Below, one piece after another: positions 1 to 43,344 of a stretch of 64,000 nt of DNA. The notes under the pieces were generated by a model that did no database searches, had not been told where the DNA came from, and saw only the letters and a list, made by a program, of their open reading frames with translations. The first letter of the stretch is position 1. Each line of letters begins with the position of its first letter. Source of the stretch: Saccoglossus kowalevskii (taxonomy: Eukaryota; Hemichordata; Enteropneusta; Harrimaniidae); assembly GCF_000003605.2 (NCBI RefSeq), contig NW_003110974.1:380984-444983 (forward strand), written 5' to 3'. Made by a program: the position numbers and the translations under genes.

Positions 1-412
1 TTTATTTTGTCCAGTAAAAGCTGTTGTGATAATAAGCTCCTTTCAATAAATGTTTCTCGTAAAAACACTTTTTGAAATGTGTGTATAGTAAAATCACTTT
101 TAAAAGTGTCGTGATAATAAGAGTTTTTATATTTTCAATACGTGTTATGTGCAAAAACATCCCTGAAATGTTGCAATAACAACACTGACTGCAAGTGTTT
201 CCATCAAATACACTTTTCGTAATTATGCAGATTAAGTGTTTTTTAAGTGAGTTTATAAGCACTTTGAATGTGTTACCACAAAACAGAAAACAATATTTTC
301 GATAAAAAAAAAAACTTAATGTGTTTAATTATAAAAAAACTTAAAGGGATTTTAAAGTTGGGACAAAAATGTTTCATATTTTAAAACACTTGAATTTACG
401 AGTGTAGCACGT
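1..412 (+). repeat. Periodic ACACTTTT repeat, copy A (cut by window edge)
   Basis: Short motifs of the form ACACTTTT and AAAAGTGT recur every few tens of bases, often as small palindromes. The block ends in a stretch (about 300-412) containing GGGACAAAAATG and TTTTAAAACACTTGAATTTAC-like sequence. The same succession is found in reverse complement at 10510-11060 and, more diverged, at 4779-5350. No protein is evident. I infer that this is the right-hand end of a copy whose body lies upstream of the window. Confidence 0.7.
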
Positions 413-964
413 TGTATGGGAAAGCAGGTAGCGAAATACGATTAAATAATACGAGGTTATTATCACACATATAAAAGTGCTTTCTCTCAGGACTCTTTTT
501 CAAAAATACATTGAAAAATGTATATACAAGTTTTTTAACTGACACATTGTTATGAAAAGCCACGCAGTATTTGTATCAGAGACACATTTTAAAAGCGTCT
601 GCACTGATAACGAGATTTAGAATCAATATCAATACACTGGTGTGTGACACACATGTATCTGCATCCGAAATACTATTTGGAAACGGTTTATGAGCAAAAT
701 TAAATGATACGTTTCGCGATCCTGCCTGGCATGAAAAAGTATTTATTTTTAACTAATAAAGTCCTCGAAAAAATGTGTTCTGGTGAATGTTACCAAAATA
801 TTTCGTATATTTCGTAATATATTATAAGCCTGTGCGTTATTTAATCTGTTTACCACAGTATAGCTCATGATTTGATTAGTATTTTTGCAGATTGGGTTTT
901 TAATTCAGTAGATCGTTTTCACCTTGAGTGTATCAGGCTTTTTGTGTATCAGATTATATTGTCA
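413..964. other. Non-coding stretch between repeats
   Basis: There are scattered weak matches to the ACACTTTT-type repeat around 470-620. No gene, RNA or clear element is seen in the rest. Confidence 0.4.
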
Positions 965-1870
965 AATATATTTGAATTCATATTGCACAATTCCGTCTAG
1001 TCGTTGTAAGTGCACTTTTACTACACGCTATTTTTTATTTGGGACAGTGCGGTGAGAAAGTTTGCTTGTAGAGGAGAGATGCGTTTGCCAATTGCGAGTT
1101 GTAAATGTCAGGTTCCATGTAATTGTGTTTTATGTCTATATGTTCAAGTGTGTGCATGTGTTTGCTAGGAGGCAGATTTGTCCCAGAGGGTTTCATATCA
1201 AAGTAGGTCGTGATGAACATGCTTTTAGTAGGTTTTATTTGTATGCAAAACATTATTCTGCATTTTAATTTGAACGTCAAAGATTCGAATTGTGCATGTC
1301 CATCTAGTCAATTTACGTGCACATTCACTACACTATATTCCATGGGGTTATTTTTAGGACAGTGCACTGTAGCGTAATGAAGGGCGCTTCAATTGACGAG
1401 GCACATAAGCCTAGATGCGTATTCAACTATTGTATTCTAGTAATCTCGTGTTTCTTGTTTATATATCCATATATGTGACTGTAATTACGATTACTTCCAC
1501 TCAGGTGTACATCATTGCTGGTGGGCAGATTTGTCTCCAAGGGTAGGTTGTTCTGGACATAATTATACTAGGTATTATTTATGTGCAGAATTTATCCTCC
1601 GTGAATGTTTTGGCGTCAGAAATTTGAATTGCGCATTCACTACCAGTTATTTTAAACCGTCATTTGGCACAGTGCGTTTATAATATGAGGGCGCATTTAC
1701 TTTGCGGTGTGATGCACCTTTGCTGAGTTGCAATTTCTAATCTCGTGTTTTATGTAGTTTCATGTTCATATGTTCGTATATAATTATAGAGTTTATTGTT
1801 GCCTACATTCAGGTATTCATTTGTGATATCAGTTTGCGATTATAATTATATTCAGAGTGGTGAATCAAAT
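965..1870 (+). repeat. Degenerate tandem repeat, about three units of ~315 bp
   Basis: Three successive blocks share the same order of motifs. A GGGACAGTGC-like box ends near 1050, 1365 and 1675, preceded each time by a TTGAATT(C)..GCGCAT..CACTAC-like stretch. A GGCAGATTTGTC box follows at about 1171 and 1527. Units 1 and 2 also share the TAGGTATTTATTTGTATGCA-like part. The units are clearly diverged, so the array is old. Two short overlapping open frames at 1035-1280 lie inside unit 1 and are not credible genes. Confidence 0.75.
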
Positions 1871-2299
1871 TTAATATGCTCGTCTTTTTAGAATTTCATG
1901 ACAATCGGAAGACAGGGCGACATAATGTAATATGTCGAATATTAAGTAAAACAAATAAAAGTTACTTTCTGTACAGACTAACGAATAATGAGATCACGGA
2001 TTTAGAATTAGTATAAAATAAAGCATATTACAAAAGCAATTAACATTATTTTTTACCAAATCACCACACTATTTATATTATCAAACAGGGTCAATCAGAA
2101 TGAATGATTGAATAACAAGATATATTTAATAGGAATGAATGTGGTTGAAGTAATGCATTGCTACGAAGAGACCCAAATGATGCTGTAAAGAATCACATAC
2201 ACTCTGGTTGACACTTCCTTGGACAATTGCCATTACTTTTTGAGGTGGAGTTGCACTTAAGTAGAGTAACTCACCCGAACGTCAAGTTTCAAGTCTTAT
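1871..2299. other. Non-coding, nothing recognised
   Basis: AT-rich sequence with stops in all frames. It has no similarity by eye to the flanking arm and lies outside the inverted duplication. Confidence 0.4.
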
Positions 2300-5200
2300 A
2301 ATGAAAAAATATGTCTATTATATTATGAAACATCCGTATTTTTTATTAAAATACCATGTTTTAGTATTTTTGAAAGGGTGTTTGTCGGTGTAATATTTTG
2401 ATGAAATTTAAACACATTGTAAACACACACACAAATATTAAAAAGATAAAACACTGAGTGTTTTACGGCGACATACATGTGACATTAATGTCTTCATGGG
2501 ACACTTAATCCACCGAAGTTAACGCAATTAATCAGGTCGTCGTGACATTACCTTATTCAGGGAACAGTTTTATGTGCCCTGATGTCACTACGCTAATATA
2601 CTCAAATATTTCAGGAGACAGCAACAGTCATTAACACCTAAGACACAAGATCATGGAAGGAAAATATGTATGTACTCCCTTATGGCCTTATTGACAGTAC
2701 AAACTGAAAATCAAGTCACATGGCGAAGTACTTTGAGACATAATGGACTTTGATTATCCACATCTGGTGTACAGTGGCGGCGTTTCGAAACATCAAGCAT
2801 TCTCACATGCGACTTAAAATTTGTTTTGACAAACAAAATCACTAACCATCTTTGTACCCAGAACACCTGACTATAAATGTTTAAAGGGCGGCAGTTGTAG
2901 CGCTGCGCATGTGCGACATTTGTGTTGACAAACATTGATTTTCCCACAATCCAGTGCACTCTTATAATGAAAATCACAAGTATGAGATGTGACCTGGGGG
3001 AGACGTATACCGCCGTTGATTCTTTTGATACCTTCCAGTCACCTAAAAAATACCCAATTGAAGCTCGGTAACGTCTCAGTTTGTACTCGTTGATGTTTAT
3101 GCAGTGTTTCAATACACGGTTCATAAGTGTTTATGTATACGACATGTACCCACGTTCATAAGGCTGACTAAAACACTTTTCCCGAAAAACATTTCATTTG
3201 AGAGCAATTCATAAAACAATATTTCAACCTATAACACCAAACCATGTATGTTTCACGAAGTGTATGTTCAGGACACTGTTGCATGGAGTCTATAATCAAA
3301 GTATTTATTAAAAAAAAACGACATTATTATATAAATTTATTCATCATTATGCTAGAGGATACATAGCTAGAAAATAAAGGCGACATTCACATTAAATCAT
3401 GAGGAAAACCACATTAAATTAAAGTATATATATTGTGAGGAGACATATTGTGAACGTTGCGACAAATTTATCGATTATAGAAATTTCCATAATAAACAAT
3501 AATAAAATAAATGCGTGAGCGGTTACCTGTCATAAATTCAGTAGTAAATTAAATTAAAAATGCACAGTGATGTTATCAATGTTCAAGTTGGACAGGCGTT
3601 ATTTTTTTGCGATCTAATCAATAGATTCATTTTCTTCATATCTATTATTCCATTGACACCTCAGTATTGAATGGTATCTGGTAGTGATTACCACACACCT
3701 GTGTGAACTGTGTGAGTATACTCTAATATTGAACACCATTATATGTTGTGTTTACATGTAACTGATAACGTGTGTCGTGTGCACGCTCATTCAACAATTG
3801 AATTATACATTTAGGAGCATGTGGCTTGTTTCAAATCATGGCTTTACGATCTTTAAATGCAATTCATAGAACCAAGCATCGGCAGTTGTGCACTGCATTT
3901 TCATTTACAGCGGCCTCCATTCATTTGATTAGTGTGGGTTGGTACGATAAATGATTTAACTCAAATTCATGCATTTACAGAACCAAGAGAATTGCACACT
4001 GCGTGAATTCCTTGCCGACATCTTTAAGAGACATGATCTGAGTTACCAAATAAAATATAGAACCGTTAGGCAGAATTTAAAAGGAGTGCTCGAAGCAATA
4101 ATGATAATTAATTAAACATTATTACCTGAATTTTGATAATATGTTTTTTCAGATTAAAGAGAAAAAGTAAAGGTTCGCTAAGAACACGCGATATGATTTT
4201 GACAATATTTGTTTGTTGTTGATTCAGTCTTTCCGTGCCAGAAGAGCTCTAATTAGATAAATATCCTTTTAAAAATACTACACTATACTATTTTAAGAGA
4301 TGAAAATAGACAATCAAACTATTGGAGGGATATAAAATTGAAAGATGAATTAAATGAAATTGATATAGTGCATATATGCAGAGACGTGGATTGGTTGACA
4401 ATGGGATTGCAATAGAGTAAATTGATTTTATTGAGCATGTTTCAGTGAAATAAATGAGTTTTCATTTGTCAAACAATTTTTCTTTTTCCTTGGAATTTGA
4501 TATGCCCGTACAGACTGCATTCGAAACAACGATAGGGCAAAAGAATGAGCACGTTCATTTATATTAACGAAGAAAGAGACAGTTTAAAGATGTTGTTTGT
4601 TTCAGTTTATTACACATCTCTTTTATTACTCATCTATGTCCATGTTAACAATTATTGGGTATTGTTTATACAGTTTCGCGAAAGGTGTTAATTTCAATAA
4701 CTATTCAGATGAACATAGTGTCTAAACTTGACTAAGTAGTTTGTTTATTGTACGTATTGAATTGTATTTTGCATTTAATCACTTTTTAAAATGTTTTATA
4801 AACACTTTTTTCGATGCATAATTCTGGTGGAAGCATTTTTCAAAATATATGTCCAGTAAAACACTTTCCATAGTGCTGTGATGGTGAAAACATGTCCTCG
4901 ATTGAGATACTATTACACGTGTCGTGATTATAAACACTTCACAAAATGTGTCTAGTAAAAACACTATTGCTGTGTTAAGCAATACTTGTCAATACATGTT
5001 TGCAGTGAAAGAACTTTTCAAAATGTGTGTCTAGTAAAGCACTTTTAAAGTGATAATAAAAACGTTTCTAATAAAACACATAGTGTGATGTGTTATATGC
5101 AAAAATATTCCAGCAATTTTGCATTCAAAAACACTGAATTAAAGTCTACTCACTTTACATAAGTATGAAAATTATAATCATTATATGTGTTTTAAAGCGG

Positions 5201-5350
5201 ATACAAGCCTATAAACACTCTAATAATGTTTTACCTCACAAAAGTAAAAACAATATTTTAAAAGTGTATTGTCGTAATATAAATCATTTAAAAATAAAAA
5301 AAAAATGATTGGTAATTTTAAATTGAGGAAAAAACACTTAACAGTGCATT
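2300..5350 (+). repeat. Left arm of a large diverged inverted duplication
   Basis: This ~3-kb block matches the reverse complement of 10510-13850 in collinear order. Anchors are 2456-2466 with 13746-13756 (GAGTGTTTTAC), 3165-3180 with about 13081-13095 (CTAAAACACTTTTC), 3780-3800 with about 12349-12372 (CACGCTCATTCAAC), 3880-3930 with about 12110-12160 (GCACTGCATT and CAGCGGC), 4095-4115 with about 11822-11850 (CAATAATGATAATTAATTAA), and 4671-4696 with about 11287-11315 (CAGTTTCGCGAAA and GTTTTAATTTCA). The arm ends in the ACACTTTT repeat (4779-5350). Identity is moderate with many indels. No coding capacity is conserved between the arms. It may be a copy of a large non-autonomous transposon or an inverted segmental duplication. 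Confidence 0.85.
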
Positions 5351-6149
5351 TGGAGAACCCATATACATAATCTTAATACAACCTCACATAAACAAACTCA
5401 TACAATCAAGAATTACTAAACAATACCTATATGTGAAATCACCCATTCCTCCCTCGCCAGTCATACAACGAATGATAAATACCCGATGTCAGCACTGCAT
5501 ACATTCCACTGATGCTATTTAAGATTGTCTGCGAAATTATGTCCGTGAAACCTTTTAAATCATTTTTCAGGTATACGAATGCATGTATATGAGAACAAGT
5601 CATCTAGTGATTCATGCAAGCGTCTTGCCGGTGCATGTAAACGTCAGCAAAGGCAATTGTTCAACAAACATTTATTCTAATGGATTTGGGGAATGATTCG
5701 TGTCCGGTTACTATGGATACAGCTATCGTTAGAAGGATTCTTTACTATTAGAGATATGGTCATTTTTAATGAGCAGGATAATTGGAAGCGTTTCCTTGGA
5801 ACAAAGTACATGTCAGTTGAATGCATAACACAAACAAAACGAATTATGTGTTCAGTGAAAGCAAGAAGTTGTAAAAATAAAAACCTATTCACAGCGAAAA
5901 TTTCTTCAAATTTGTGGTTTAGTGAAGACACTTATAAAAATGCTGTGATTAATATGATTCCACATCCAAATGTCGTTAGGGTTACACAAATCAAAATTGT
6001 AAAAGTTTGGAAGGGAAATTTAGTTACTGAGATATGATATGACTTTATTACATTTACTGGAATATCTCATTACAGTCGTTGCACGACATGACGTCGAATC
6101 CACGATACAATAAATTATGACCTAGAGTGTGCACCAACGCATAGACAAC
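5351..6149. other. Non-coding, nothing firm
   Basis: The stretch contains a 114-codon open frame (5693-6037) with no recognisable domain and no codon or splice support. I regard it as chance. Confidence 0.4.
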
Positions 6150-6925
6150 AACTAACTAAAACAAAGGGGTGTTTTTGTCAACATAATGAATGAAAACAGA
6201 TTATGACATGGATAATGAGAAAACAAATGAAAATTGTAGTCGGGGAAGGTCGCGACACAATTCAAAGCCGTTGCCATTTGTGGAGCTATACACCTAATAC
6301 ATATGATGACACTTTTTATCATCAAACCGTAGAAAATGACGAATTACTAGAAGACATCCCCTTCCAGTTCTAAGTATCGTATATGTACTTACGTAATTAC
6401 AGTAATGAATAATTATAATGAATCAATATTCAACTAATATGATTGTTGGTTTGTATGCGCTTTGTAGATGTGTTTGTGACATTGGAAATGTACTTATTTC
6501 AGTATTGCTTCAATCTATTCAAAAATGTTTATTCTTATGGGGAGTGTGTGCCACTAAATTTCTAGTCCGTCCCAACCGCTAAAAAAATTAGCGCGTAAGA
6601 TATATCGAATATTAAGATCTTGGGGTCGACATATCATTATGCAACTAAGCTGTATCGAGAAAATAGAGCATGCAGCACAGATATTAAAACCAAAATCACG
6701 ACTCAATTGTTGGCAAATAATAGTTGACCCATTAAATGACTTCACTATAAACGGACCAAGTCAATTTTAAATAAACACTTATAAATACAAAGATATACGT
6801 CAATTTGAAAAAGAAACTGCGTGCGCTTAGGGGTAAATTGAAAAAAACAGTTTTGTTGTCAATAACTGGATGATTCTCTTGTACAGAATGATAGGCGCCA
6901 TGTTCATATTTTACCTGATAATGTA
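6150..6925 (+). repeat. Direct duplication, copy 1
   Basis: Aligns by eye with 7290-8295. Shared landmarks are GGGGAAGGTCGCGACACA at about 6241 against GGGGAGGTCGTGACACA at about 7375, AGCTATACACCTAATACATAT at about 6283 against 7426, TACTTACGTAA near 6388 against 7610, and GGGTCGACATAT..ATGCAACTAAGCT near 6624 against 7827. GCAGCACAGATA at 6674 matches 8053, and GTCAATTTTAAATAAACA near 6759 matches 8152. This copy has no insert where copy 2 carries a MITE, so it preserves the ancestral empty site (about 6660-6675). Confidence 0.8.
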
Positions 6926-7289
6926 TTTTGGCCACTTGCTGCATTTCTTTACAATACACCTCCTTAGATGTAGCTATTGCAGTTTTATTCAGCAGGGATC
7001 TCGCAGTTATATCGTATATATCGATTAAAGTGAAGTATTTATTTAAAAATATTCTAGGAATATCGGACAGATCTTAGATAGAGTATGTGCCTCATAAACG
7101 AAGTGATTGGCGATAGAAAGTTTGTCTTGTAACTTGATTTAAAGATGCAAATTTTTCATAAATATTGATGCAGAGGTTAGTCTGAAGCGGATGATGGTGG
7201 CTGGATAAATCACTGAGAATTGAGCAAAGTATTTTTAGAATAACAAGACTGAGAAAAAATCTGCTACTTTTTTATACAATGATCATGGG
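6926..7289. other. Spacer between direct duplicates
   Basis: AT-rich spacer with no recognisable gene or repeat. Confidence 0.35.
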
Positions 7290-8295
7290 AGCAAGTAGCC
7301 AAAACAACGTTTGCTGTTTTTATGATTCAAAAGAACTAATTTGATAATGTTTTATCAACATGCAGAATGAAAAAGGGGAGGTCGTGACACATTTCGAAAG
7401 TGTGAAAGACTGCTGCCATCAGTGAAGCTATGCGCCTAATACATATACAGGTACTGACGTATGATGGGACTCCGCTTCATATTCTTATACAATTTTTCAA
7501 TAATTTCGCCAACTTTAATACCTTAGAATTACTAAAAATAAAAGTCGTCGTCAGAGATAGTGAAAGATGTGAGGAACTGTTATCCTTTAAAAGTAAGTGC
7601 CGTATATACACTTACGTAAATACAGAAAAGTTGTCATGTCCAAAAGTATATTTAGGAGCAAAAGTAAACAACAAATGTGATCTGGGGTTTTAATGCGCTT
7701 CAGGGATACGCGTAGCATTATCATACGAAAAACTAGCTATGTACTTGTTCAATTTTGCTTAAATTCAAACCATAAAATTATGGTGTGACACTAAGATTCT
7801 AGTCGAGCCCTGATAATGAGGTCACGGGGTTGACATATTAATGAGATACGTGCAACTGAGCTATTTCGATAAACTAGAACGAGCCAGTGGCGGATCCAGC
7901 AAAATGTATTGGGGGGGGGGGTCCAAGCTTCGCTTAAGATATACGGAGCATAAATTGCAGATAAGCTATGCGTAATCCAGATGATATGAATTGTCATGCG
8001 TTTGGGGGGGGGTGCCCCCTGGCCCTCCCTCTGGATCCGCCACTGGAACGAGCAGCACAGATACTGAAACCAAAATTATGATTGACCCATTAAATGACTA
8101 CGCCTTAAACGCCTTAATTTTGTGAGGTATAAACGAACTTAAACGGACTCACGTCAATTGAAAATAAACATTCATAATTATACACATGTACGTGCGCTCA
8201 GAGGGTATGTCAAATTGATATGGACATGTATGCATCCAATAACTCTCTTGTATTGAAAGGTAGACACCATGTGCATATTACACATGATAATTGTA
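7290..8295 (+). repeat. Direct duplication, copy 2 (interrupted by a MITE)
   Basis: Second copy of the block at 6150-6925, in the same orientation and about 1.15 kb downstream. It is longer mainly because of the 161-bp insertion at 7885-8045. Removing that insert and one target copy restores collinearity. Divergence is considerable, so the duplication predates the MITE insertion. An 87-codon open frame at 7430-7693 falls inside it and has no open counterpart in copy 1, so it is not supported as a gene. Confidence 0.8.
7885..8045. mobile_element. hAT-type MITE with 8-bp target-site duplication
   Basis: A 161-bp element bounded by inverted termini CAGTGGCGGATCCAG (left) and CTGGATCCGCCACTG (right), flanked by the perfect direct repeat GAACGAGC at 7877-7884 and 8046-8053. 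An 8-bp target duplication and CAG..CTG ends are typical of hAT-superfamily elements. The inside is subterminally G/C-rich, with runs of G near both ends, and has no coding capacity, so it would depend on a transposase encoded elsewhere. The paralogous site at about 6660-6675 lacks the insertion. The perfect target duplication and well-kept termini suggest a fairly young insertion relative to the host duplication. Confidence 0.93.
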
Positions 8296-8725
8296 AATTT
8301 CATAATTAGACACAGGTTTCTTTCCATCACGATTCATTATATAATTCGGTAGAGTCATCATTTGAATACAGAGTGTTAATTCTTCTTATGTTTAGAAGAA
8401 AAAAATACTCTGCTCGTGAATACAGGCGAGATTATGTATGAATACCCCTCTCGGTCCTCGGTCAAAAGTAATCATTAAATGTAAAACAATGGACCCAAGA
8501 TGTGAATTTTCCTGCTTCTGTGCGTCTCAATTTTTTACCATACTTCGGTTTAAAAAACATTCGTTAGTTAACGATACCTGCCGAGTACAGTAACGAAGGA
8601 ATACTGCGCAGTTTGGGTATATTTTTCTACAGCTTCATCGCAGGCTGTGTGTCGCTAGAGCGTGTGTGTATGTATTAACTATTTCTGTATACAATGAGCA
8701 AATGAATGTAGATGAATAAAAATAA
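8296..8725. other. Non-coding, nothing recognised
   Basis: AT-rich sequence without a credible gene. Confidence 0.35.
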
Positions 8726-9310
8726 TATATTGGGAGTTCATTAATAAAGAAAGCTTCTGAATATAAATATCTAGGACATTGGTTTACAAGGAACCTGCCT
8801 GATCATATCCAATCTAAAACACAAATTGAGAAATGTTATATCCTCTATTATGGCAGTGTAAAGAAAGTAGATTATGGCGTGTCACCCTTGAATAAAAGTC
8901 ACATAATGCACAGTAAATGTATTATCGGCGCAAGCATACATGCAGTGAATTAATGTTGTAATACTTGGTGATCAAAGATTTATCACTGTGGCAAGCCGGT
9001 TAACAATTATGAAACTAAAATATTACACACGACCGTTCCACTTTGAAGAGTACAAAGTGTTAACAAATATATTTAACAATTTAATTAGTATATATGAAGG
9101 TTTCACAAAATGTTTGGTAAACATGTTAAATTAAACAATTATATATTATATTATAACAAAATTGTGAAAGATATTATCAAAACTCCTTGGACAGCAGTTT
9201 GAAGCGAGAAACTCGTACCGTTAGGCTTATGAGAAAAATAGGCAGATGTATGTGTTCCTGTTGTGGAAATGATATTGACACATCTTAGATTGTAATTTCT
9301 AAAACATTGT
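8726..9310 (+). mobile_element. LINE remnant: reverse transcriptase C-terminus and terminal zinc knuckle
   Basis: The frame 8726-8953 (75 codons before a stop) encodes a segment with EYKYLGHWFT followed by DHIQSK, the pattern that follows the catalytic core in non-LTR retrotransposon reverse transcriptases (KYLG-type motif, then a helix with an HI signature). Downstream, at about 9244-9302, CMCSCCGNDID is followed, after a one-base frame change, by HILDC. This matches the CxxC..H..C knuckle that ends many LINE ORF2 proteins. Between them the frame is interrupted by stops. No endonuclease or palm domain is present, so this is a 5'-truncated, decayed copy. The clade (L2/CR1/RTE-like) cannot be fixed from this much. 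Confidence 0.6.
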
Positions 9311-10509
9311 TAAAATAAGGTACTTTTAAATATGTTAAGCTGATCTATTTCAAACACATACTTGATTTATTTTGAATGTTATTGAGTATTTATTGGATGA
9401 GAAAAAATTGATATTATCATTATAATTTGACATTGTCTTAATATGTCGCATTTCTGCTTTGAGAGATTAGTGATGGCGCGATGTACATAATATGTCTAAC
9501 TTGATCAGGGCGAAATGAGCTAATAACGTCTCCTTTCTCGGTGATTAACAGTGACTAATGGACAGTGATCTGTCACCTCGGATTCGTGGGCACTGACTTT
9601 ATAATGCTAAACGAACTCGAAAGATGTGCCATTGTAAGCAATACGCATAATGCCCGCTCACTATATTAGTGACAGTGTGCACACATTAGCATTGACTGTC
9701 ATGAAACACAATATGACAGAATGTTGATAGGTGTCCAATCTAGCAGATTCATCCTTTACATTTTAAACTTGCCACAATGACCTGATCCGAATAAGATGCA
9801 ATACGTTATGTCGAGTCTGATCTGTAACCACATGCAGAGATGTGTTGTTAGTAAAGTGTTAAGCAAGTGTAATGTCAAATGTGAGTTCTAACTCACTTGA
9901 TTCATTCTGTCTTTTCATGTTGTTTTTGCCATGCAGATCATTATATTCAGTAAATCATACTAACTATAAGTGCAAGAATTTCCACGTTCACAATCAATTT
10001 ACACATGATAACCTATTGAACACAATGTTTTTCGACGATCGTGGCTTTTAAAACACTCCAATAATCCTACTGAGAATCAACAACAGTGAAATGTTTCCAT
10101 TCATAATTAAGTGGTAGTTTTCAAAATGCAAATATGTTCACTTGTTTCCGATTGAATCAAATCACAGTGTAACACGAAGCATTTATGTCCAATGATACAC
10201 AGCGTGATGTGCGTCTGAATTAATAGTGCTCTCAATCAGACGATGTTACTTATTTTTAGTGCTTACTCAATCAAGGCCAAATATCTAGAATTATATGTGC
10301 TATTATTTGTACATGTAGTTTGATCATGTTGTCTTTGAATATTGACTAGTCTTAAATTCAAAATTGGTCATTAAATTCATAAATATTACAGAATTTCAGG
10401 TCAGAATTGAGCGCATGTTCAATGGCACGGCATTTCACGATTTGTCGGTGTAGCATAACGGCGCTTTTATTTATTTCATCATATATTACTCCATCTTATC
10501 TCACATTCA
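9311..10509. other. Non-coding, nothing firm
   Basis: AT-rich stretch inside the inverted pair. No clear match to 5350-6149 was found, so the inverted homology seems to stop at the repeat ends. Confidence 0.4.
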
Positions 10510-13500
10510 CATGCTCTGTAAATTTAAGTGTTTTAAAATATAACATCATTTTTGTCCCACCTTAAAATCACTTTAAGCGTTTTATAGTTAAACACATTAA
10601 GTGTTTTTCTTAAAATCGCAAATAAGTTTTTTTACTACACTGCTGCTTTATAATAAAATATGTTTACTGTTTTGTGGTAAAACATTTAAAGTGTGTATAA
10701 GCTTGTCCTCACTTCAAAAAACACAAATGTTTATAATCTGCATAATTAAAAATATGAATTTTTTTTTCATCAGAAACATGTATAAAAAGTGTTTATTATC
10801 TCAACACTCTTAAAAGTACTTTTACTAGACACACATTTTGTGTTCATAACCACGACACGTTAATTGAAAAGTGTCTCAACCGAGAACATGTTTCAATTAT
10901 TTGTATAGTATCACAACTTTTTGAAAAGTGATTTCACTAGATACACATTTTGAAAAAATGTTTCCATCACAAATTTGTATTGAAAAAGCGCTGGAAAGTG
11001 CTTTCACGCAAAACACAAACTTAATATTGACAAGTGCCCGTATTAGTGGCACATTTTAAAATGTATTTCCACTGATAACATGCTAAAACCATTATCACTA
11101 TCATTTTGGAAAAGGAAGAACATATATATCAAATGATGCGTTTCATAATCAAGCAGATTATTTATATTTATTACAGAATATAAACATTTAATAAAGTTAA
11201 TTTGAGTATGACCGACACATATTTTTGAATAAAATAATCGCATGAAGAAGTGTTCTCAACTTATATGCGGCTGAATGAGTGCGTTTCCTGAAATTAAAAC
11301 ATTTCGTGAAACTGTAGATACAATTCCTAATATTGACATTGACACTTAACAGATGAGTAATGAACTGCAACGACCCTTAACCTTTTCTTCATTGATATAA
11401 ATGAAAATGCACTATCTCTTCCCATGTGATATGCTTGTCTATTGGTACATTTAATTTCAGGAGGTAAAATCATTAATTTCAGAGAAACATGTTCTCTAGA
11501 AATAAACATTCTCACTCAATTCTCGGATCTGTATATATCCACTACATCCATTCTATTTCATTCATCTTACACTTTTCTATCCGTCAAATGGTTTGATAGC
11601 TTATATTAAGCACTTTTAAAATACCCTCTGAAACGCGAAGGGTCGACTATATTTACCTAACCAGAGTTCATCTAGCATAGAGCACACTGAACCAACAATA
11701 ACTCATATTATAAGAACAAAATTAATCCAAAATATTAACAATATCATTTTGTCCGCTCCGATCCTTTCTTTTAAAATCTGAAAATTATAATAATATCAAA
11801 ACCCAGTGAGAAAACTTCATTTAATTAATTAATTATCATTATTGTTTTAAGAAATCCGATAATTGAATCAGAAATATGTGATGTAAAATATCATTGTTAG
11901 ATAAACGTAACGCACATGTAATGCAAATGCGAAAATATGACCACACACCATTTACACAATTTGAACAGCATTTTCATGTTAAATTATGCCTAACATTTCT
12001 TTGAAATTATTTGGTAATGTATCTTGGGGATGTCGACAAGGAAGTTATACATTATGGAATTCGTCATTATGGAATGACTTTAATCAGTTATCCCGCACAT
12101 AATGAAATGAATAGATGCCGCTGCTGATAGCAATGCAGTGCGCAACTGTAGATACTGGCTCTATCAATTACACTTTCTTTACGTTTCGCAACGGAGTAAC
12201 AAAATCGTCATACCTTCAGGTTTATTTCGGATAACATCCGGTTCCCTTCTTTCCTCAGAAAATCTAAAAGGCATCAGTCGGTGTAAGTTGTTGCTTCTTT
12301 AACGAATATGCCACCTGTTCACAAACTCACGATATTATGATTAAAACGTTGAATGAGTGTGCGCACGACTCAAGTTACAATTTATTTAAACAGGCGACAT
12401 AAAATAGTGTCACCGTCGCTTACGAAAGGTATCTCAGTCACCTCAAAATGTTTCCGAAGAGGTAACAAAAAAATTAGATACCAGTTGAGTGGTCATGTAA
12501 TGTTAGAACAGCTCATATAAATTATAACCGACTTTGCACAGATTCGCGGTAATCATCATATTAGATGGAATTCAGCATTGAGGCTCCGCCAATAGAATAA
12601 TATCCAAAAAGAACACGAATCTAATTATTAGATCACAGGGAATTAACGTCTGTCTAGCGCTGAGTCATCCTGCTTACTAACTCGATCATTGATAACAACA
12701 TCGTGGATGTTTAATTCCATATCAGTTGTTAAACTTGTGACAGGTATATAGTATGCACACTCGCAAAATATATGAAAATATAAAGTTGTTTATTATTGAA
12801 AATACTAAAATCAATATAATAATCAATACATGCATTGTATATGCTTCACACAGTCGATAATAGCAGTGTGTCTATTATAGATGCATACCGTAGACGGCAA
12901 ACCAAAGTGTCCAGTGTATGAACACCTATATAGTCGGGAGTTTTTAGTTGAAACAATGTATGTATGTTTTTTTATGAAGTGCTTCAAAATGAAACAGTCT
13001 GGAAAAAACTGTTCTATACAGAAACACATGAAATATGCATAGTCGGGTATTTTACCTTGAAATACTGCATGTCTGCTTAAGAAAAGTGTTTTAGTTACGC
13101 TTATGAAAATAGATGAGCCTTATACATTAACACTGTGTTTTGTGTTTGTGTTTTGTGCTTTTTCACGTGTTTCAAATTGAACTTGTTTCGAGAAAAATGT
13201 TTAAACAACATGTGAGAATACTCAGGTGTGATTGAAACTACAAGAACCGTTCACCAACTGTATCTAATCCATGAGGCCACTAGATACTTAATTCACTACG
13301 TGTGTCGATTTTCAGCTGTACTCTATGCTAAGGCCATATAAGCGTAGATACAATTAATTCTTCCTCAACCTGGTGCTTGACATAAAGCTATTTTCTGAAA
13401 GTAATGTCATTACCATCATATTATGCGTTGAATTACGTCACCTTCGTTTATTTTCTGATTGGCATATATACCGTAATTTTTAATTACGATTCTCCAGTCT

Positions 13501-13850
13501 TTTCATTCAATTGTGTTAATACTGCTTATATAGAGTTGGATGTACTGGTCCATAAATGTATATCAATAAACACTTATCATCTCATTATGCGATGGATTAC
13601 GTCACCTTCGGTGATTGTCTAGTTGGCATATATACCTTAATGTTTATCTATACGAGTACCCAGACATTTCACTAAATTTTGTAATATTGCTTGCATAAAG
13701 TTGGATGCACTAATCCATAAATGTCCTATAATGACACATGTCCCCGTAAAACACTCAGTGTTTTATTTTGAAATAAAAATACTAAAATACTACTGTTTTG
13801 ATATAAAATAAAGTTTTTTATAATATAATATACATTAAAAAGGTGTGTTT
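10510..13850 (-). repeat. Right arm of the large inverted duplication
   Basis: Reverse-complement partner of 2300-5350, collinear across its length. It begins (10510-11060) with the ACACTTTT/AAAAGTGT repeat, whose edge closely matches copy A at 300-412, including GGGACAAAAATG-like and TTAATGTGTTTAA-like stretches. It runs through the shared anchors to about 13850, where ATTATATTATAAAA-like sequence matches the left arm near 2320. It is ~300 bp longer than the left arm, partly because of the 164-bp tandem duplication at 13408-13735. Several short open frames within it are not conserved in the other arm. Confidence 0.85.
13408..13735 (+). repeat. Two-unit tandem duplication, period 164 bp
   Basis: ATTATGCG..GAATTACGTCACCTTCG at 13420 recurs as ATTATGCG..GATTACGTCACCTTCG at 13584. 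Both are followed by TTGGCATATATACC and later by AGTTGGATG..CT..TCCATAAATG. Units are about 13408-13571 and 13572-13735. The left arm near 2500-2530 shows only one reduced match (CACCGAAGTTAACGCAATT), so the tandem step probably arose in the right arm, or one unit was lost from the left. Confidence 0.85.
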
Positions 13851-16800
13851 TATTGAAAAAAAAATGAAAGTGCTCCCAAGATTCACAATGTCGTTAATGT
13901 TAAATTTTATCAGAAATGTGTAGTTTATTGCATTTTATTTCGATCTGGTTGCTGCTGTTTTCTTAAGGTAGAGATGCAGGTTCGTGGGCACTTGTGATTG
14001 AAATTGCTTTTTATTATCCAAACAGTCTTGGATATACACTGTTAAAATTTTGTTGAATTGTGAATAGTGGAACATACTCAAAAAACGATTTTAAAATATA
14101 CATAACAGGTGCAAATATTCTCTCTTTTGAATGCTTAGCAAGATTTAGCAAGGCTGTACATAAATAATCAAAAAGAAACATGGTAAAAAAGGAAATGACG
14201 GGATCTCCATAATATGCACTATATTTAACTTTTAACAAAACGATAATACATTTAAATTTGAAACTGTTACAGCCATTTTAATTATGAGCATTAGCCAACT
14301 TCTTACTGAGTGAATTGTTAGGCAAATTAGCAATTATCTCAACTTCTTTTTAGTGCACATCCCAGAAATAAAAAAAAATGCTCCTAGACGCTTTGACCTT
14401 TTGTTTTGTTTTGAAATTTATACATGATTGACAATGTGTTTATCTTCAACACGCCGTCGGGCATTGTTTTTGGTTGAACAGTGATACAACAATCGTACAG
14501 ACAACTAGCCTGGGTGTTAATTTATGCAATAAACTTGAAGTAGTGAAATTTGAGCTGCTGTCCTGCAAAATTGACAACTGGTAGACAGTTTTCAAAACGA
14601 CACTTTCTTCATAGTAAACAGATGAATCCATAAACCAATTTTGACAGGAAACAGAAACATGGTTTAGAAGCTAATTTTCTTCAAATCACTTTTGATCAAA
14701 AAAGCACATTTTATGCATATTTAAAACTACAGTATCCATAAAAAATACTAACAAAAAGTTAAAATTCATACAATAAGCTTTCCGAAAATATATAATTTTG
14801 AGGACAGGGAAGGTCTTGGTTTCCTAATTAACTAATTAAAATACCTGTCAGGTAAACTGCATATCTACCTTAAGTAAATTCTCGATTTCTGAAATGTCAG
14901 ATACCCTCCAAAATCGTAAACGTTACGATATTTTTAAATTGATTATCGAAAATTAAAATATAAACCAATCATTAGAAAACAATGCTAACGTCTGGTCGAC
15001 AAATCATTGGACGGGGTTAATATTTATATAATATAATTCTACCCAATGATAGGAGTTCAAAAACAAGTACGTAACATTCTGATCAAGAAGATCACACTCC
15101 GAGAAATTCGCATTTTGCTACAAAGTGGATTCTAAATAGAGCGTGAAATTATATTTTAGCTACTGTGAATACTGTTAAGTATCAAATGACATGGGTAATA
15201 CGATTTGATGTTCCGTGTACCACCCATTACAGGCAGTATCCAATTGCGATGTAGTCAATTGAATTTCAAATAAAACTAGAACCGGAAATTATGAGGCAAA
15301 TTGATTACCTAATTAAAAATTGGTTTGCAACAATTCAAATTGGCCGACACGTTATGAATGAAACATATCGTAGTATTCAGACACGTGTTTCGTATTCATC
15401 TATTGATTCAAAACATCAAGATGAACAGTTTAACACATACTTTAGTCCGCATCCACTGTACGCATATATGCATTCACCAATCGATACACCAATACTTAGA
15501 CGTATGTAATCCATTGCAATTTTATCATCGTTCCTATGAAGCCCTTGTGACATCGTGTTAGGAAAAGTTGTATTTGATCTCAGTTAAATTGAAAGATTTA
15601 ATTCGGTGCATCAAGGATGTTGACCCATCAATCAGCGTTATTGTAAGAAATAGTCGCATCAGCTTCAAATTTGAACCAATAAGTGTTGCTGTCTTATATC
15701 ACATCACACATAAACACGCGACTTAGCGTTCGATTTCGCATTTAAACGAATCACATCACTTATTTGTGCGCTCCATTTGCCATGGAAACGCACCAGAGCG
15801 TTCGCCGTTGGTTTTGATTTCTTCCAGAGAGAATACAGTTTTACAGTTGGAATACTGTCAAAGTGTAATGGTAAGACGACGGCAGAATAAATGAATTTTG
15901 TATGGAGAAGATGCAATTACGTGTGATAGACAGCATTGTCATGATAATGTCCAAGAATGTTAGGATGATACAGTATTCCACACGCTGGTAACATCATCGA
16001 CATAGCTTATAGGTAGAAGTTTTTGACTGAAATGGTTTGTCATATAATATGGAAGTAATTCTCAAAACTTATCACCTTGGCTACTTATATGTAATTTCAG
16101 TAATTGTCATTCTTATACTTAATTAGAAATATGTGTAGTAGCTACTGGTATTCATTTAACATTCTACCACTCACGTGCAGGCTCCTGAAAGATACATCGA
16201 CTAACACAAACAACTATTTGAATTCCCCATATACTAAGTTTATAGCCGCGTGGAACCCCTGAACAAAATGTCTCACTAGTAAAACACAGATGTACAAAGC
16301 GTAACATAATAAGCATAAACTTTCCCTTGTGTGCAAATTAAATCTTATTCTGGTATTTACGAAAACGTGATTTAGGCTACTATGTTTAAATTTACTAGAA
16401 TAAATAGTCCCATCTTTAGTTCATGCAGTGTTCATTGTAGTTCAGTTTGCACTTCTACACCGTACATGCATGTTTAATTTGATTTTCCTTCTTGCTGTAA
16501 TGCAATTTGTCAACATGCATGCCGGAATTCTCAATTAGTATATATATGGATAATCTCCATAAACGTATATATATTGTCAATTTGTGGTTAATTCCGATTA
16601 ATTTGGAAGATATTCCCAAGAATGTATAGGGTAATGAAACTCTGTGTTCAAAATGTATCCGTAATTGGCGGAAGATATGTTACTGTAACATAACAGTATT
16701 GTGACTGCTGACGATGCTAGCTCTGTGTTGTGCTAACTGCATTAAATAATTTTTTGTTTGTGAGGTCGACTATATATTGTATTATCACCTGTATATATTT

Positions 16801-22332: not shown

Positions 22333-22791
22333 TTTCCAAAAAAAGAATATGGTTTCGGGTGGATTCATGAATCCTAATAGTAAAACAGAGATCTAATGAG
22401 GTGATTACGGTAAACTATATGATGTTTATTTGACAATATTCCTGACTTCGTGCTACCAGATTGCCAGGCTTGATATGAGCACTCATCTTTCCACGAAAAT
22501 GCATTTCCAAAACAACAATATGGTTTCGGGTGGATTCATGAATCATAATAGTAAAACAGAGATCTAATGAGGTGATCACGGTAAACTATATGATGTTTAT
22601 TTGACAATTTTCCTGACTTCGTGCTACCAGATTGCCAGGCTTGATATGAGCACTCATCTTTCCACGAAAATGCATTTCCAAAACAATAATATGGTTTCGG
22701 GTGGTTCACGAATCCGAATAGTAAAACATCTAATGAGGTGATTACGGTAAACTAAATGATGTTTATTTGACAATTTTCCTGACTTCGTGCT
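22333..22791 (+). repeat. Satellite-like tandem array, 171-bp period, ~2.7 units
   Basis: GGTTTCGGGTGG begins at 22351, 22522 and 22693, giving an exact 171-bp period. The first two units are nearly identical. The third carries small deletions and ends at TTCGTGCT (22791), where unique sequence begins. Inside each unit are ATCTAATGAGGTGAT(T/C)ACGGTAAACTA and CCAGATTGCCAGGCTTGATA. The near-identity indicates recent tandem amplification. The unit has no open frame. Confidence 0.95.
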
Positions 22792-25389
22792 GTTACTGCT
22801 GTGGTTGTCGTTGTACATATTCTATACATTATTTTCCGCCGGCAGTTAATCCAAATGATATCCATTTAATATCCTCTAAAAATCTAACAAACAAATGGTT
22901 GTCGTCCTGGCTATAAGTGTTTGTCCTATATCACGTGGCTGTCACCTATCAGACGATATAATGTCGAACAAATATTTCACTGGCGTTTGATTATACGTAA
23001 ACATGTAACATGTATAAACACATTTAGGGTTAGGAAATGTGGTTGATTGATTTTTCTGTTGTTTTTTAATACTGGTTAATTTTAATACTGGTTAATATAT
23101 TAATAATAATATAACATTGGGCTTTATTTTAAGTATAAACACATTAAATGTGTCTGAAGATACACCCATTCAAATAATGGTTTCGATGTCACGTGATATG
23201 TGTATCGAATTAATGATCTGCTATTCAAAAAAGGCAGACCATATAATTTATTCAACTAATGTAAATTAATAGATATGTTTTATTTTCACTCTGTATCGCG
23301 GCAAGTACAAGAACCAATGCATACTATATTGTTCGATCGTGTTTGTGCGGTATTATTTCTCGGCTCCTTTCTACATTATATTGTGAATTCAAATATTACG
23401 TAGTACGAGATTATCTGTTTATGCAATTCAACCAAATGTAATCTTTTACTAGTGTATCCATTAGGGGTGGTATTATATATCTAAATACACTGTATATAAT
23501 ATATGAAGAGTATTTTTTTACAGAGTGATAATAAATGCGACTGTGTTATTTGAAACCCGTCGGTGTTTTTATATAATGTCACTAACCACGTATCATCACA
23601 TTTAAAATCCGATTTATTCTTCGACATAAGCCTCTATTATAAATATTATCAGATACATGGTTGTACTCTAAACGCCGTAATGTAGCTATGCAATGATTAA
23701 ATTACTATTTAAAGAGAGTGACATTTGCTCTCATCGTTTACCATGGCGAAATGACTTCGGGGAAGTGGATGTAGGCTGGAGGTTGTTTTACATGTAATTG
23801 CTATCAGTGAAGTACATTGCCCGTTGTATAATTCTAAATACGTTTTATATCTGTGCAAAAACATCTAAATGTTTAGAATTAATCGGCTCGATATAAAAAT
23901 AAGCGCGTCATTAAAGCGTTTACGTTTCTTGTAATTTTCATAATTTTGTATTTCTTACATCCTCATTTTGTCTTATTGAAGACACAGCCTGTGTGGGGTT
24001 TTTTTCGTATCACATGTCAGAATGTATCAGATCCAGATGAGATGGAGTCTAACTGATGCATCATGGGAAATGTCTTCAAATTGTCACATTAGAATGCAAA
24101 TGCTATCGTTCATAATCACTGTGTTTTATTCGACAACATTTAGTCCATCCACATGACGATTCGCATCACATCGGACTCGTTTTGCAGAGTACTGTAGTAA
24201 CAAACGCAGATTGGATTTTAAGGTGAGAGGTTTTAAGTTGTATCTCATGTCCAATCATGTTTATGTGCCGTGTGGCTAACAGCCGTATTACAAACGTGTA
24301 GGTAAATCCAATATATGTGTGGCATTCAGATAGATGTGGTGGAAAAAGTAATCCTCCCGTATCTCCGTAATCATAATGGTTGATACTTTATTCCATGATC
24401 AGTTCTAAAATTGTTCCGCCTATTATCCCAATGTTAGATACTATGTTCTCAGTACCACATGTTGTATTCAGTAGTTTTAGTAATGAACAACGGTAAGTCC
24501 GTGCTAGAGTGTGTTCATTCAACATAAAATGCAGACAACAAAGAAATAAGTAATACCAAACCAATTACTTTGTTTCCAAATCAATGATTCATGTTAATTC
24601 AAAATGATTAGAGCTAATACATCGAGTTAATAAAATGCTTCGTTTGAAACGTGCCATGGGAACAAAACAATCAAGATAGCTGATATATGTTTTCGAATAA
24701 TATAAATTTAATTATTTCTGGAAATAAATATTAGAATCACATATTGATCCCAATAATCTCGAATCAATTAGACAAATACAACCTGTTCTGCATTTATAAT
24801 TCCATTGTAACACTGACTAATATGACCCATCGCGATATATTGTAATTTATTATAATAACAGTATGTAAAACGTAACAACACATGCCATACAGATTAGTTA
24901 CGATGTTCATTTCACTTCGCGGCAGTACATTGTTTATGAGAATAGTGTAGTTTTATCACTGCGACTAACTACTATCACGTCTTCGTGGTCAACTCATGCA
25001 TGTACCTTTAATGACTGAATTCCGTTCTCTTTATTTTTAATCAGATACCAATTACACGTTTATCAATATATATTGAAAGTCATGTTTTAAAGATAAGCAA
25101 AGCGTTATACTATGCATGTATGCGAGAAACACAATCAGAGCGCATTCTTCTTCCGCTGTGTTTCCCGTTGGTTGTAATCAACTCTCTCAAATTACCAGCA
25201 ACGTCGTCAGTTACAACTTCCAATCCGTACCCCGGCATGACGATGTTTCTAAGTACCTGCCTAGGTAGTTAACCACTTCATCCATGTACAAAAGCTGTCC
25301 GGCCACATGTGCGTACAATTAGTGTACTTTGTATTGTCAGAGCCATTATCAATTTAGTATTGTATTCCGGCAATTAGGTGAACATTCTT
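22792..25389. other. Upstream intergenic region of the receptor gene
   Basis: No coding exon is recognised. It includes a short direct repeat (TTTTAATACTGGTTAAT, about 23066-23096). The receptor's promoter and any 5' untranslated exon should lie here or further upstream. I cannot identify a TATA box with confidence. Confidence 0.4.
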
Positions 25390-25406
25390 GCGTATTTTTT
25401 TTTCAG
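25390..25406 (+). promoter_or_regulatory. Probable 3' splice site before the receptor coding exon
   Basis: A long pyrimidine tract (GTATTTTTTTTTTCAG) ends in AG at 25405-25406, 21 bases before ATG 25428. It falls inside the upstream extension of the open frame. It suggests that the long frame from 25329 is partly intron and that an untranslated 5' exon is spliced in. Confidence 0.65.
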
Positions 25407-25427
25407 TTAACTATTTCGCATGCCATA

Positions 25428-26507
25428 ATGAACATCACAAATATCACCGTGGAGATGGAAGAGAGTGGCGGGGAACAATATGGTTTTACGTGTGGTGCAA
25501 CTGGAACTTCCTTATATGTAGTGGGTATACTGATCTGTTTCATTGGCCTGCTTTTTAACGGAGCATTCGTGTTTGTGTTTGCTCGCGTACGCTATATGAA
25601 AACACTAACGAACGCATATTTAGTGAACTTAGCTACATCTGACATGCTATTGCTTTTGAGTGTTTTACTGGTTTATGTGAGCACGCTGGTGGATCGTGAA
25701 GTTCTCACTCGGGATCTCAACTGTGCCATCAACTATATACACACGACGCTGTTATTCGTATCGCTATGGGTTGTTACCATCGTCAGCATCGAAAGATACC
25801 TGGGTATTTGCAACCCACTGAAGGCCATGATGCTAAAAACAAAAGGTCGAGTAATGTCTCTCATCTGCACAACCTGGGTACTGGGCGTGCTATTTGCTAT
25901 GCCGAGAATTCTACAATGCACTCTGTTAAAATCACATCCGACCATGTTACAGAAAGCAGAATACGCGGTCTACATTACTTATGCATTGATGTTCCTTGTT
26001 TCTATGGTTACCGTTGCCACTATGTACACTCTGACAATTACTAATTTTAGACAGTCCGTCAAACGGCTGCGGGATCGTAAACAGTCGAAAAAAATCAAAT
26101 CCGATGAGAAGCAAGTGCTTGTCACGTGTATGGCTATATCTGTAGTGTTTTTCATCTGTATGTTGCCAGCATTTTATAAATACGTATTACATGTGATATG
26201 GAAAATGACCGGCTCAGACATGCCACATGGTGGGCACTTTACGATCTGCATGTACGCTCTGTCCAAATGGTTCCTACTGATTAACTCATCTATAAATCCA
26301 ATAATATACACTATCACCAGCGCACGTTGCAGGCGAGCATTTTACTTAGCGTTTTGCTGCCGACAAGAAGAGTCCGACTACGGTGTGACAGGCACCGTGC
26401 GATCGACTCTCGGTAACAGCTCTAGTATGATGGCAAGTATCAATATGGGCAACACGGAATGCTCTTACAAGCCCAGACTGCCAAACGTGACAGAACTCAG
26501 TCTCTGA
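25428..26507 (+). CDS. Class A (rhodopsin-like) G-protein-coupled receptor, peptide-receptor type
   Basis: An integral plasma-membrane receptor expected to couple an extracellular ligand to heterotrimeric G proteins. The open frame runs from an upstream ATG at 25329 (392 codons). I prefer ATG 25428 (359 residues), which has A at -3, follows a strong splice acceptor, and leaves a short glycosylatable N-terminus (NIT twice). Numbering below is for the 392-residue frame. TM1 is about 61-85 (N77), TM2 96-118 with LATSD (D105), TM3 132-156 with C132 and ERY 155-157, and TM4 175-195 (W183). ECL2 has Cys 197, the likely partner of C132. TM5 is about 212-238, TM6 262-290 with FFICMLP, and TM7 about 305-328 with NPIIY 323-327. 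Cys 343-344 could be palmitoylated, and a Ser-rich tail follows. The usual CWxP tryptophan is Met 278. The ICL2 and TM2 style recalls TRH/neuromedin/ghrelin-type receptors, but the ligand is unknown. No disruption is seen. Confidence 0.95.
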   Translation: MNITNITVEMEESGGEQYGFTCGATGTSLYVVGILICFIGLLFNGAFVFVFARVRYMKTLTNAYLVNLATSDMLLLLSVLLVYVSTLVDREVLTRDLNCAINYIHTTLLFVSLWVVTIVSIERYLGICNPLKAMMLKTKGRVMSLICTTWVLGVLFAMPRILQCTLLKSHPTMLQKAEYAVYITYALMFLVSMVTVATMYTLTITNFRQSVKRLRDRKQSKKIKSDEKQVLVTCMAISVVFFICMLPAFYKYVLHVIWKMTGSDMPHGGHFTICMYALSKWFLLINSSINPIIYTITSARCRRAFYLAFCCRQEESDYGVTGTVRSTLGNSSSMMASINMGNTECSYKPRLPNVTELSL

Positions 26508-42610: not shown

Positions 42611-43325
42611 CTCGCCAAGACCAACTAAAAACAACTTTATTCACTTTCAAAACCTCAACCAATTACAAAGCAGTATAAAAACTCTAGGGCGTAATCTTCA
42701 ATCATACAGCCAATCACACTAAATACTGAACACGTCATATCTTTTGATTAATCGTTCTAATCGCTAAATTAGTAACCGCGAATACCAACTGTCAGAAATA
42801 GTATTCCGAATACGACGGTTATATCGTAATTAGTTCCAAATCACTGAACCAAGTTCAGTCCAGAACCTCGCATGGGCCTAAACGATGACAGACATAACAC
42901 AGCCATTCACTCGCAACCAGCTAAATAAGTCGATCAACAGATACGTGCAAACAATTTCATCAACACGAAAACTTCAATAACTTTCAAAACGTCGATATCT
43001 CTGTACATCGACAAAACTCGCCAAGACCAACTAAAAACAACTTTATTCACTTTCAAAACCTTAACCAATTACAAAGCAGTAAAAAGACTATAGGGCGTAA
43101 CCTCATATCTTTTGATTAATCGTTCACTACATTAATAACTGGGAATACCAACTGTCAGAAATAGTAGTCCGAATAGCGACGGTTATATCGTAATTAGTTC
43201 CAAATTACTGAACCAAGTTCCGTCCAGAACCTCGCATGGGCCTAAACGATGACAGATATAACACAGTCATTCACTAGTAATCTGCTAAATAAGTCGATTA
43301 ACAGATACGTGCAAATAATTTCATC
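42611..43325 (+). repeat. Tandem duplication, 406-bp period
   Basis: CTCGCCAAGACCAACTAAAA at 42611 recurs at 43017. Both are followed by CTTTATTCACTTTCAAAACC, ATATCTTTTGATTAATCGTTC, ACTGTCAGAAATAGTA and CCTCGCATGGGCCTAAACG in the same order. The second unit is shortened internally and ends at about 43325. Similarity is high, so the duplication is fairly recent. No coding role is visible. Confidence 0.92.
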
Positions 43326-43344
43326 ATACAATCCCAGGAATATC

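What the first reader, a model, noticed from the sequence alone, without database searches (positions are those of the whole stretch)
2300..13850. Two ~3-kb non-coding arms in inverted orientation, collinear over their whole length
At least eight anchors match in exactly reversed order between 2300-5350 and 10510-13850, with coordinate sums staying near 15.9-16.2 kb. Divergence is substantial, yet order is kept and no protein frame is shared. This is either a large old inverted duplication or two opposite insertions of one large non-autonomous element that I do not recognise.
Basis: seen in the sequence. Interest (0 to 1): 0.72.

Follow-up and report, generated by a model that had tools for sequence, protein, structure and literature searches.

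The report
Old 3-kb repeats facing each other
Two old, non-coding 3-kb DNA copies lie in opposite directions in what looks like an animal genome; a third and a probable fourth partial copy beside them suggest worn-out jumping DNA rather than a single flipped duplication.

Summary
Positions 2311-5392 and the reverse complement of 10471-13835 align collinearly (core score 642; best of 100 shuffles 118) and form the strongest self-match in the 64-kb window. Identity at aligned columns is 60-76%, depending on the aligner. No protein signal was found.

Copy 3 (1-449, + strand, running off the window start) carries the tail of the arms. A weaker, probable copy 4 (457 to about 883, - strand) follows it directly, as if copy 3 had jumped into it. 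In the shared tail A and B are the least alike of the three copies, which speaks against one local inverted duplication. Nothing beyond chance was found at 14-64 kb.

Best reading: old, non-coding, presumably non-autonomous transposable elements, with A and B as opposite insertions. Class unresolved: no TIRs, LTRs or target-site duplications found. A single foldback-like element with 3-kb terminal repeats remains a serious rival. The decisive genome-wide search could not be run: the tool did not answer in 15 requests. Interest is modest.

The parts
2311..5392 (+). Arm A: copy of the roughly 3.1-kb non-coding repeat; inner end uncertain, between about 5341 and 5392
   Evidence: Collinear with the reverse complement of arm B over 2436-5392, score 642 against shuffle maximum 118; outer end from the 2311-2371 / 13835-13775 match (2 of 300 shuffles as high); match to copy 3 stops at 5334-5341
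10471..13835 (-). Arm B: second copy, opposite orientation, roughly 3.4 kb; inner end uncertain, between about 10441 and 10523
   Evidence: the inner end at 10471 is set by the blastn match with copy 3; a looser alignment runs on weakly to 10441
1..449 (+). Copy 3: the inner (tail) end of the same repeat, cut off by the window start
   Evidence: blastn 41-449 against 10869-10471, 123 bits, and 8-368 against 4949-5334, 121 bits; scores 276 (B) and 217 (A), 0 of 300 shuffles as high for each
457..883 (-). Copy 4 (probable): diverged fragment in opposite orientation, starting right after copy 3; ends at about 803 (match to B) or 883 (match to A)
   Evidence: Summed score 152 against both arms, best of 64 tile-strand tests; 0 of 1500 shuffles as high, shuffle maximum 147; matches A 4696-5059 and B 11224-10906, overlapping places in the arms
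4780..5392 (+). Tail of arm A with degenerate short repeats, cores AAAACACTTTT and TGTSTMTAGTRAAA
   Evidence: Motif AACACTT 6.5 per kb here, 8.9 in copy 3, 4.6 in the B tail, 0.24 per kb beyond 13836; core positions
10471..11130 (-). Tail of arm B with the same degenerate short repeats
2447..2465 (.). Palindrome TAAAACACTGAGTGTTTTA (one unpaired central base) near the outer end of arm A, kept exactly in arm B
   Evidence: Inverted pair 2443-2474 / 13738-13769, 94% over 32 bp; both copies printed
13747..13765 (.). The same palindrome near the outer end of arm B
13410..13724 (-). Tandem duplication (start-to-start about 164 bp) in arm B; no such pair was listed for arm A
   Evidence: 13410-13559 / 13574-13724, 79% identity (which shows 20 of 30 direct families)
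5393..10470 (.). Spacer between the inner ends; the stretches next to the two inner ends are unrelated
   Evidence: 5392-6100 against the reverse complement of 9800-10523: 56 of 300 shuffles as high

Best explanation
The arms are two old copies of one roughly 3-kb, non-coding, presumably non-autonomous transposable element, inserted at separate times in opposite orientation about 5.1 kb apart. Copy 3 is a younger insertion of the same family and copy 4 an older one into which copy 3 jumped. Shown: collinear homology of A and B, no detectable coding signal, a third copy of the tail, unrelated flanks at both ends, and no A-B sister signal in the shared tail. Supported but weaker: copy 4, and that copy 3 stops at the family's tail end. 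Inferred: movement by enzymes supplied from elsewhere, perhaps recognising the AAAACACT motif that is dense in the tail and also forms the conserved palindrome near the other end; the class of element; and dispersal elsewhere in the genome.
For: Copy 3 matches both arms strongly and on the expected strand. Copy 4 starts right where the blastn match of copy 3 to B stops (449 and 457), in opposite orientation, and matches overlapping places in both arms; 0 of 1500 shuffles as high, as expected if copy 3 inserted into it. In the shared tail (354 ungapped columns) the counts are c3=B but not A 73, c3=A but not B 48, A=B but not c3 24; A=B was not the largest of the three classes in any of 9 aligner/region settings. 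Under a simple clock a local A-B duplication predicts the reverse. K2P distances in the tail are A-B 0.61, c3-A 0.46, c3-B 0.37. Flanks beyond the arms are unrelated (103 of 300 and 56 of 300 shuffles as high). No coding signal.
Against: No dispersed copy was seen: the 14-64 kb part gave nothing beyond chance (best 90, shuffle maximum 100), so all copies found lie within 14 kb. No TIRs or terminal direct repeats within a single arm and no target-site duplication, so no class of mobile element is recognised. The common tail end is only approximate and partly circular: B's end at 10471 is set by the match to copy 3, a looser alignment runs on weakly to 475/10441 and so overlaps copy 4, and the A-copy 3 match stops at 5334-5341. 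The three-way test uses only the tail; its two halves disagree about which arm copy 3 is closer to, in the repeat-rich half A=B was about equal to c3=B, one setting was weak (32/11/25, bootstrap 0.20), and repeated units may be mis-paired. Copy 4 was the best of 64 tile-strand tests and only just above the shuffle maximum (152 against 147); against B alone 1 of 500 shuffles was as high, and its direct match to copy 3 is weak (11 of 500). Copy 3 is cut by the window edge.
Confidence: 0.52

Rival explanations
1. One old foldback-like DNA transposon spanning 2311-13835: A and B are its 3-kb terminal inverted repeats and the 5.1-kb spacer is its middle domain. Copies 3 and 4 are remains of other such elements.
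For: Arms in inverted orientation with matching outer ends; short repeats inside the arms, as in Tetris (PMC4079207, passages seen); a single arm lacks terminal inverted repeats of its own, as expected if the arm itself is a terminal repeat. Copies 3 and 4 also lie tail to tail.
Against: Copy 3's tail abuts copy 4, which suggests that the inner end is itself an insertion terminus (end uncertain by tens of bases). Copies 3 and 4 resemble each other less than copy 3 resembles A or B (scores 50, 217 and 276), so they are not a matched pair of arms. Changes unique to A exceed those unique to B in the tail (73 to 48; 80 to 59 and 67 to 56 with other aligners), whereas arms of one insertion should age equally. 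No outer target-site duplication, though at this divergence it could have decayed. The arms are nearly twice as long as the longest reported for Tetris (up to 1,735 bp).
Confidence: 0.25
2. A local inverted duplication of one 3-kb segment, made once at this locus, with copies 3 and 4 as further local rearranged pieces.
For: All detected copies lie within 14 kb and none was found in the next 50 kb. The neighbourhood holds other old local duplications: 6149-6969 / 7292-8342 and 907-1315 / 1202-1654.
Against: A and B are the least similar pair of the three in the shared tail (limits of that test are given under the best explanation). Copy 3 carries about the same tail end as the arms rather than an arbitrary stretch of them.
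Confidence: 0.15
3. A more specific form of the best explanation: the element is a Helentron-type non-autonomous rolling-circle transposon (HINE-like), with no target-site duplication, satellite-like internal repeats and a palindrome near one end.
For: Exact palindrome kept in both arms near the outer end; tandem repeats inside; no target-site duplication found. These resemble features given for Cg_HINE in oyster (PMC7492417, passages seen).
Against: Subterminal inverted repeats of 11-12 bp, as reported for Cg_HINE, were not identified; only a short AGTGTTTTA / TAAAACACT core is seen near both ends (read), and it is also the family's internal motif. The palindrome lies about 136 bp (A) and 70 bp (B) inside the outermost matching base. 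No Rep or helicase domain in the region, which says little for a non-autonomous element.
Confidence: 0.08

Closest known systems
Foldback-like non-autonomous DNA transposons such as Tetris of Drosophila virilis (PMC4079207, passages seen)
   Same: Long inverted arms, internal tandem repeats in the arms, no protein-coding capacity, non-coding middle part.
   Different: Tetris arms reach 1,735 bp and its three complete copies carry 8-9 bp target-site duplications; here arms are 3.1-3.4 kb with no duplication found, and the inner end may be a terminus, judging by copy 3.
Cg_HINE non-autonomous Helentrons of the Pacific oyster (PMC7492417, passages seen)
   Same: Non-coding, satellite-like repeats inside, palindrome near one end, no target-site duplication.
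   Different: Subterminal inverted repeats of 11-12 bp were not found; the repeats here are degenerate and lie next to one end, with a separate tandem pair near the other end of B; the conserved palindrome is not at the outermost matching base.
Mutator-like elements with long terminal inverted repeats (PMC3310237, passages seen)
   Same: Unusually long inverted terminal sequences; repeated motifs inside some of them; extra or solo terminal repeats are known.
   Different: Described there in plants, and the 61 tomato elements with additional TIRs have recognisable target-site duplications; none was found here, nor any transposase relic.

Membership tests
Foldback-like DNA transposon | Long inverted repeats flanking a middle domain | tested here: met
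   A and B are inverted and collinear around a 5.1-kb spacer; whether they belong to one element is open
Foldback-like DNA transposon | Internal tandem repeats in the arms | tested here: met
   Degenerate tail repeats and motif density; 164-bp pair in arm B
Foldback-like DNA transposon | Target-site duplication outside the outer ends | tested here: not met
   Longest exact shared word at 2311 / 13835 is 5 bases of A; 571 of 2000 random site pairs shared 5 or more. Only exact words were tested, so decay could hide a true duplication
Foldback-like DNA transposon | Other copies in the genome with the same paired-arm layout | not testable with these tools
   The genome search did not complete (15 identical requests, listed in Tried and rejected)
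Helentron / HINE | Subterminal inverted repeats at both ends | tested here: inconclusive
   No significant inverted match between the two 250-bp ends of a copy; a short shared core AGTGTTTTA / TAAAACACT is visible
Helentron / HINE | Short palindrome near the 3' end | tested here: inconclusive
   Exact palindrome in both arms, but 136 bp (A) and 70 bp (B) inside the outermost matching base
Helentron / HINE | No target-site duplication | tested here: met
   None found; weak evidence given the age
Helentron / HINE | Insertion between T residues in T-rich sites | not tested
   The ends are not fixed well enough
TIR-type DNA transposon (a single 3-kb arm as the unit) | Terminal inverted repeats within one copy | tested here: not met
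   First against last 250 bp: A 147 of 500 and B 77 of 500 shuffles as high; with copy 3 as the last part 70 and 33 of 500
LTR element (a single 3-kb arm as the unit) | Direct terminal repeats within one copy | tested here: not met
   A 68 of 500 and B 32 of 500 shuffles as high
Any autonomous element | Transposase, reverse transcriptase or helicase relic | tested here: not met
   No such Pfam match in six frames of 1-14402 at E up to 1; the only hit, a plant family below its cut-off, was judged spurious

The most novel reading that the evidence does not exclude
An animal family of foldback-like elements, not recognised by me as any known one, with unusually long (3-kb) terminal repeats carrying AAAACACT-rich subterminal arrays and a conserved palindrome near the ends, which tend to insert next to or into one another.
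Probability: 0.12. Interest if true: 0.45.

Novelty: new member of a known kind. Interest (0 to 1): 0.25.

Why it matters
If it is a transposon family, it is one more old non-coding mobile element in what looks like an animal genome, useful for annotation and for reading the history of this locus. Clustered, nested and inverted copies would make the locus a candidate for hairpin formation or inversion by recombination when young, but at the present divergence that is probably past. The case also shows that an apparent inverted duplication can instead be separate insertions once a third copy is compared.

Tried and rejected
Protein relics: six-frame Pfam scans of 1-14402 gave nothing credible. 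A Chloroplast_duf hit to the spacer ORF 5681-6034 (E 0.00018, E 0.03) scores below its curated cut-off and was set aside as spurious. RNA families (gathering threshold) and tRNAs: none. Arm A against phage records, and one degenerate tail pattern against IMG/VR and GTDB contigs: none, as expected for animal DNA.

A weak match of 11733-12013 to 56072-56349 looked like a dispersed copy but fell within the null when the rest of the window was tiled. A match of 5844-5956 to the tail repeats (E 9.4e-6) was uneven in shuffle tests: 1 of 300 as high against B and 16 of 300 against A, 22 of 1500 for the tile 5600-6000; it may be a stray unit of the tail repeat and is not counted as a copy. Copy 3 turned round gave a weak match to A (17 of 300 shuffles as high), which reflects the partly palindromic tail units. 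An attempt to align the roughly 300-bp repeats at 450-2300 only matched a stretch to itself because the ranges overlapped, and is not used. Target-site duplications: none.

Literature: 5 searches served for comparison only. No claim is made that this family is absent from print: the literature could not be searched by sequence and the species is unknown. An earlier count gave 76% identity; one search showed that this depends on the aligner, so the report gives 60-76%.

Full report
What the window is. GC content is 27-39% per 2 kb. A single-exon rhodopsin-type receptor at 25323-26507 (Pfam 7tm_1, E 2.5e-35) suggests animal DNA; the species is not known to me. No RNA family reached Rfam's gathering threshold and ARAGORN found no tRNA.

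The observation. Arm A and the reverse complement of arm B align from 2436/13775 to 5392/10523 with score 642. One hundred Markov shuffles gave at most 118 and 17 other stretches of the window at most 105. A further 62-column match carries the arms out to 2311 and 13835; it is less secure, with 2 of 300 shuffles as high. Chaining the self-matches of the window puts the arms first with 9 pieces and 689 bits, ahead of 369 bits for a tandem array; five shuffled windows gave at most 48 bits. Identity at aligned columns is 60% with MAFFT and 76% with a permissive local aligner, so no single figure should be quoted. Large gaps, for example near 11858-11974 and 12200-12370 of B, are visible in the alignment.

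No coding signal. Six frames of 1-14402 with X at stops gave no credible Pfam match at E up to 1. Translated matches between the arms, in the part of the list printed, are short, often contain stops and occur in many frames on both strands, as expected for homologous non-coding DNA. Mismatches do not favour a codon phase: 0.405, 0.402, 0.394.

Copy 3. The tail (inner end) of the arms occurs a third time at 1-449, + strand, cut by the window edge: 123 bits against B and 121 bits against A, with 0 of 300 shuffles as high for either. The blastn match to B stops at 449/10471; a looser alignment runs on weakly to 475/10441, and the match to A stops at 5334-5341. The common end is therefore known only to within some tens of bases.

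Copy 4. Directly after copy 3, from 457 to about 883 on the minus strand, a weaker match fits A 4696-5059 and B 11224-10906, overlapping places in the two arms. Its summed score of 152 was the best of 64 tile-strand tests and was reached by 0 of 1500 shuffles (maximum 147); the same tile on the other strand reached 113 (49 of 1500 as high). Tested against each arm tail alone it was reached by 0 of 500 (A) and 1 of 500 (B) shuffles; copy 3 against copy 4 directly was weak (11 of 500). The simplest reading is that copy 3 inserted into an older copy 4, so that the tail end near 449 is an insertion terminus. This is inferred; the other side lies outside the window.

No copies further on. Nothing beyond chance was found in 14-64 kb (99 tiles, both strands, both arms, 396 scores; best 90, against a maximum of 100 in 400 shuffled tiles).

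Are A and B sisters? In the tail shared by three copies, sites at which two agree against the third are: c3 with B 73, c3 with A 48, A with B 24 (of 354 ungapped columns). If A and B had arisen by one local inverted duplication after splitting from copy 3, A=B should be the largest class under a simple clock. With three alignment methods and three regions (9 settings, overlapping data) A=B was never the largest, though in one setting (last part, genafpair) the counts were 32, 11 and 25 and the bootstrap share for A=B was 0.20, and in the repeat-rich half A=B about equalled c3=B. The two halves of the tail disagree on which arm is closer to copy 3, so mis-paired repeat units or conversion may play a part. 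The test speaks against the duplication but rests on about 450 bases.

Ends and structure. Flanks outside the arms are unrelated at the outer side (103 of 300 shuffles as high) and the inner side (56 of 300). A single arm has neither inverted nor direct terminal repeats, and no exact target-site duplication was found for A, B or A-to-B. The tail holds degenerate short repeats rich in AAAACACT; the motif AACACTT occurs at 8.9, 6.5 and 4.6 per kb in copy 3, the A tail and the B tail against 0.24 per kb beyond 13836. Near the outer end a 19-base palindrome with the same core is kept exactly in both arms. A role as a protein-binding site is inference.

Age. With MAFFT the arms have K2P 0.58, a direct duplication inside the spacer 0.56 and the 300-bp repeats near position 1000 0.50. 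All are old, and the figures are probably inflated by uncertain alignment. Over the tail, A-B is 0.61, c3-A 0.46 and c3-B 0.37, so copy 3 appears youngest.

Interpretation. I favour separate insertions of an old non-coding transposable element (0.52), then one foldback-like element with 3-kb arms (0.25), then a local inverted duplication (0.15). A Helentron-like class (0.08) would be a specific form of the first. The element's class, abundance and host are unresolved because the genome search did not answer in 15 requests. Papers were used only for comparison: passages of PMC4079207, PMC4168063, PMC7492417 and PMC3310237, and search listings. The name hAT given to a small element in the spacer rests on my recall that such elements make 8-bp target-site duplications.

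Verdict.

Noticed in passing
window 7885-8045: Small element with inverted ends CAGTGGCGGATCC and a perfect 8-bp duplication GAACGAGC on both sides (7877-7884, 8046-8053), probably a hAT-type MITE (class recalled); the related spacer copy near 6666-6681 lacks it.
   Followed up: partly
window 6149-6969 and 7292-8342: Old direct duplication inside the spacer, offset about 1.2 kb once the MITE is discounted; 74% identity by local alignment, 61% by MAFFT (293 mismatches of 751).
   Followed up: partly
window 907-1654: Direct repeats of about 300 bp (907-1315 / 1202-1654, 59% with gaps) between copy 4 and arm A.
   Followed up: no
window 25323-26507: Open single-exon frame for a rhodopsin-type GPCR (7tm_1, E 2.5e-35); best solved-structure matches include motilin and somatostatin receptors.
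   Followed up: partly
window 22333-22791: Tandem array, period 171 bp, 2.7 copies, 94% matches.
   Followed up: no
window 42610-42962 and 43016-43326: Direct duplication, 82% identity.
   Followed up: no
window 54101-54207 and 55774-55879: Short inverted pair, 87% identity, about 1.6 kb apart; possibly two copies of a small repeat.
   Followed up: no
window 38617-38848: Stretch matching its own reverse complement (62-67%) in the most AT-rich 2 kb of the window.
   Followed up: no
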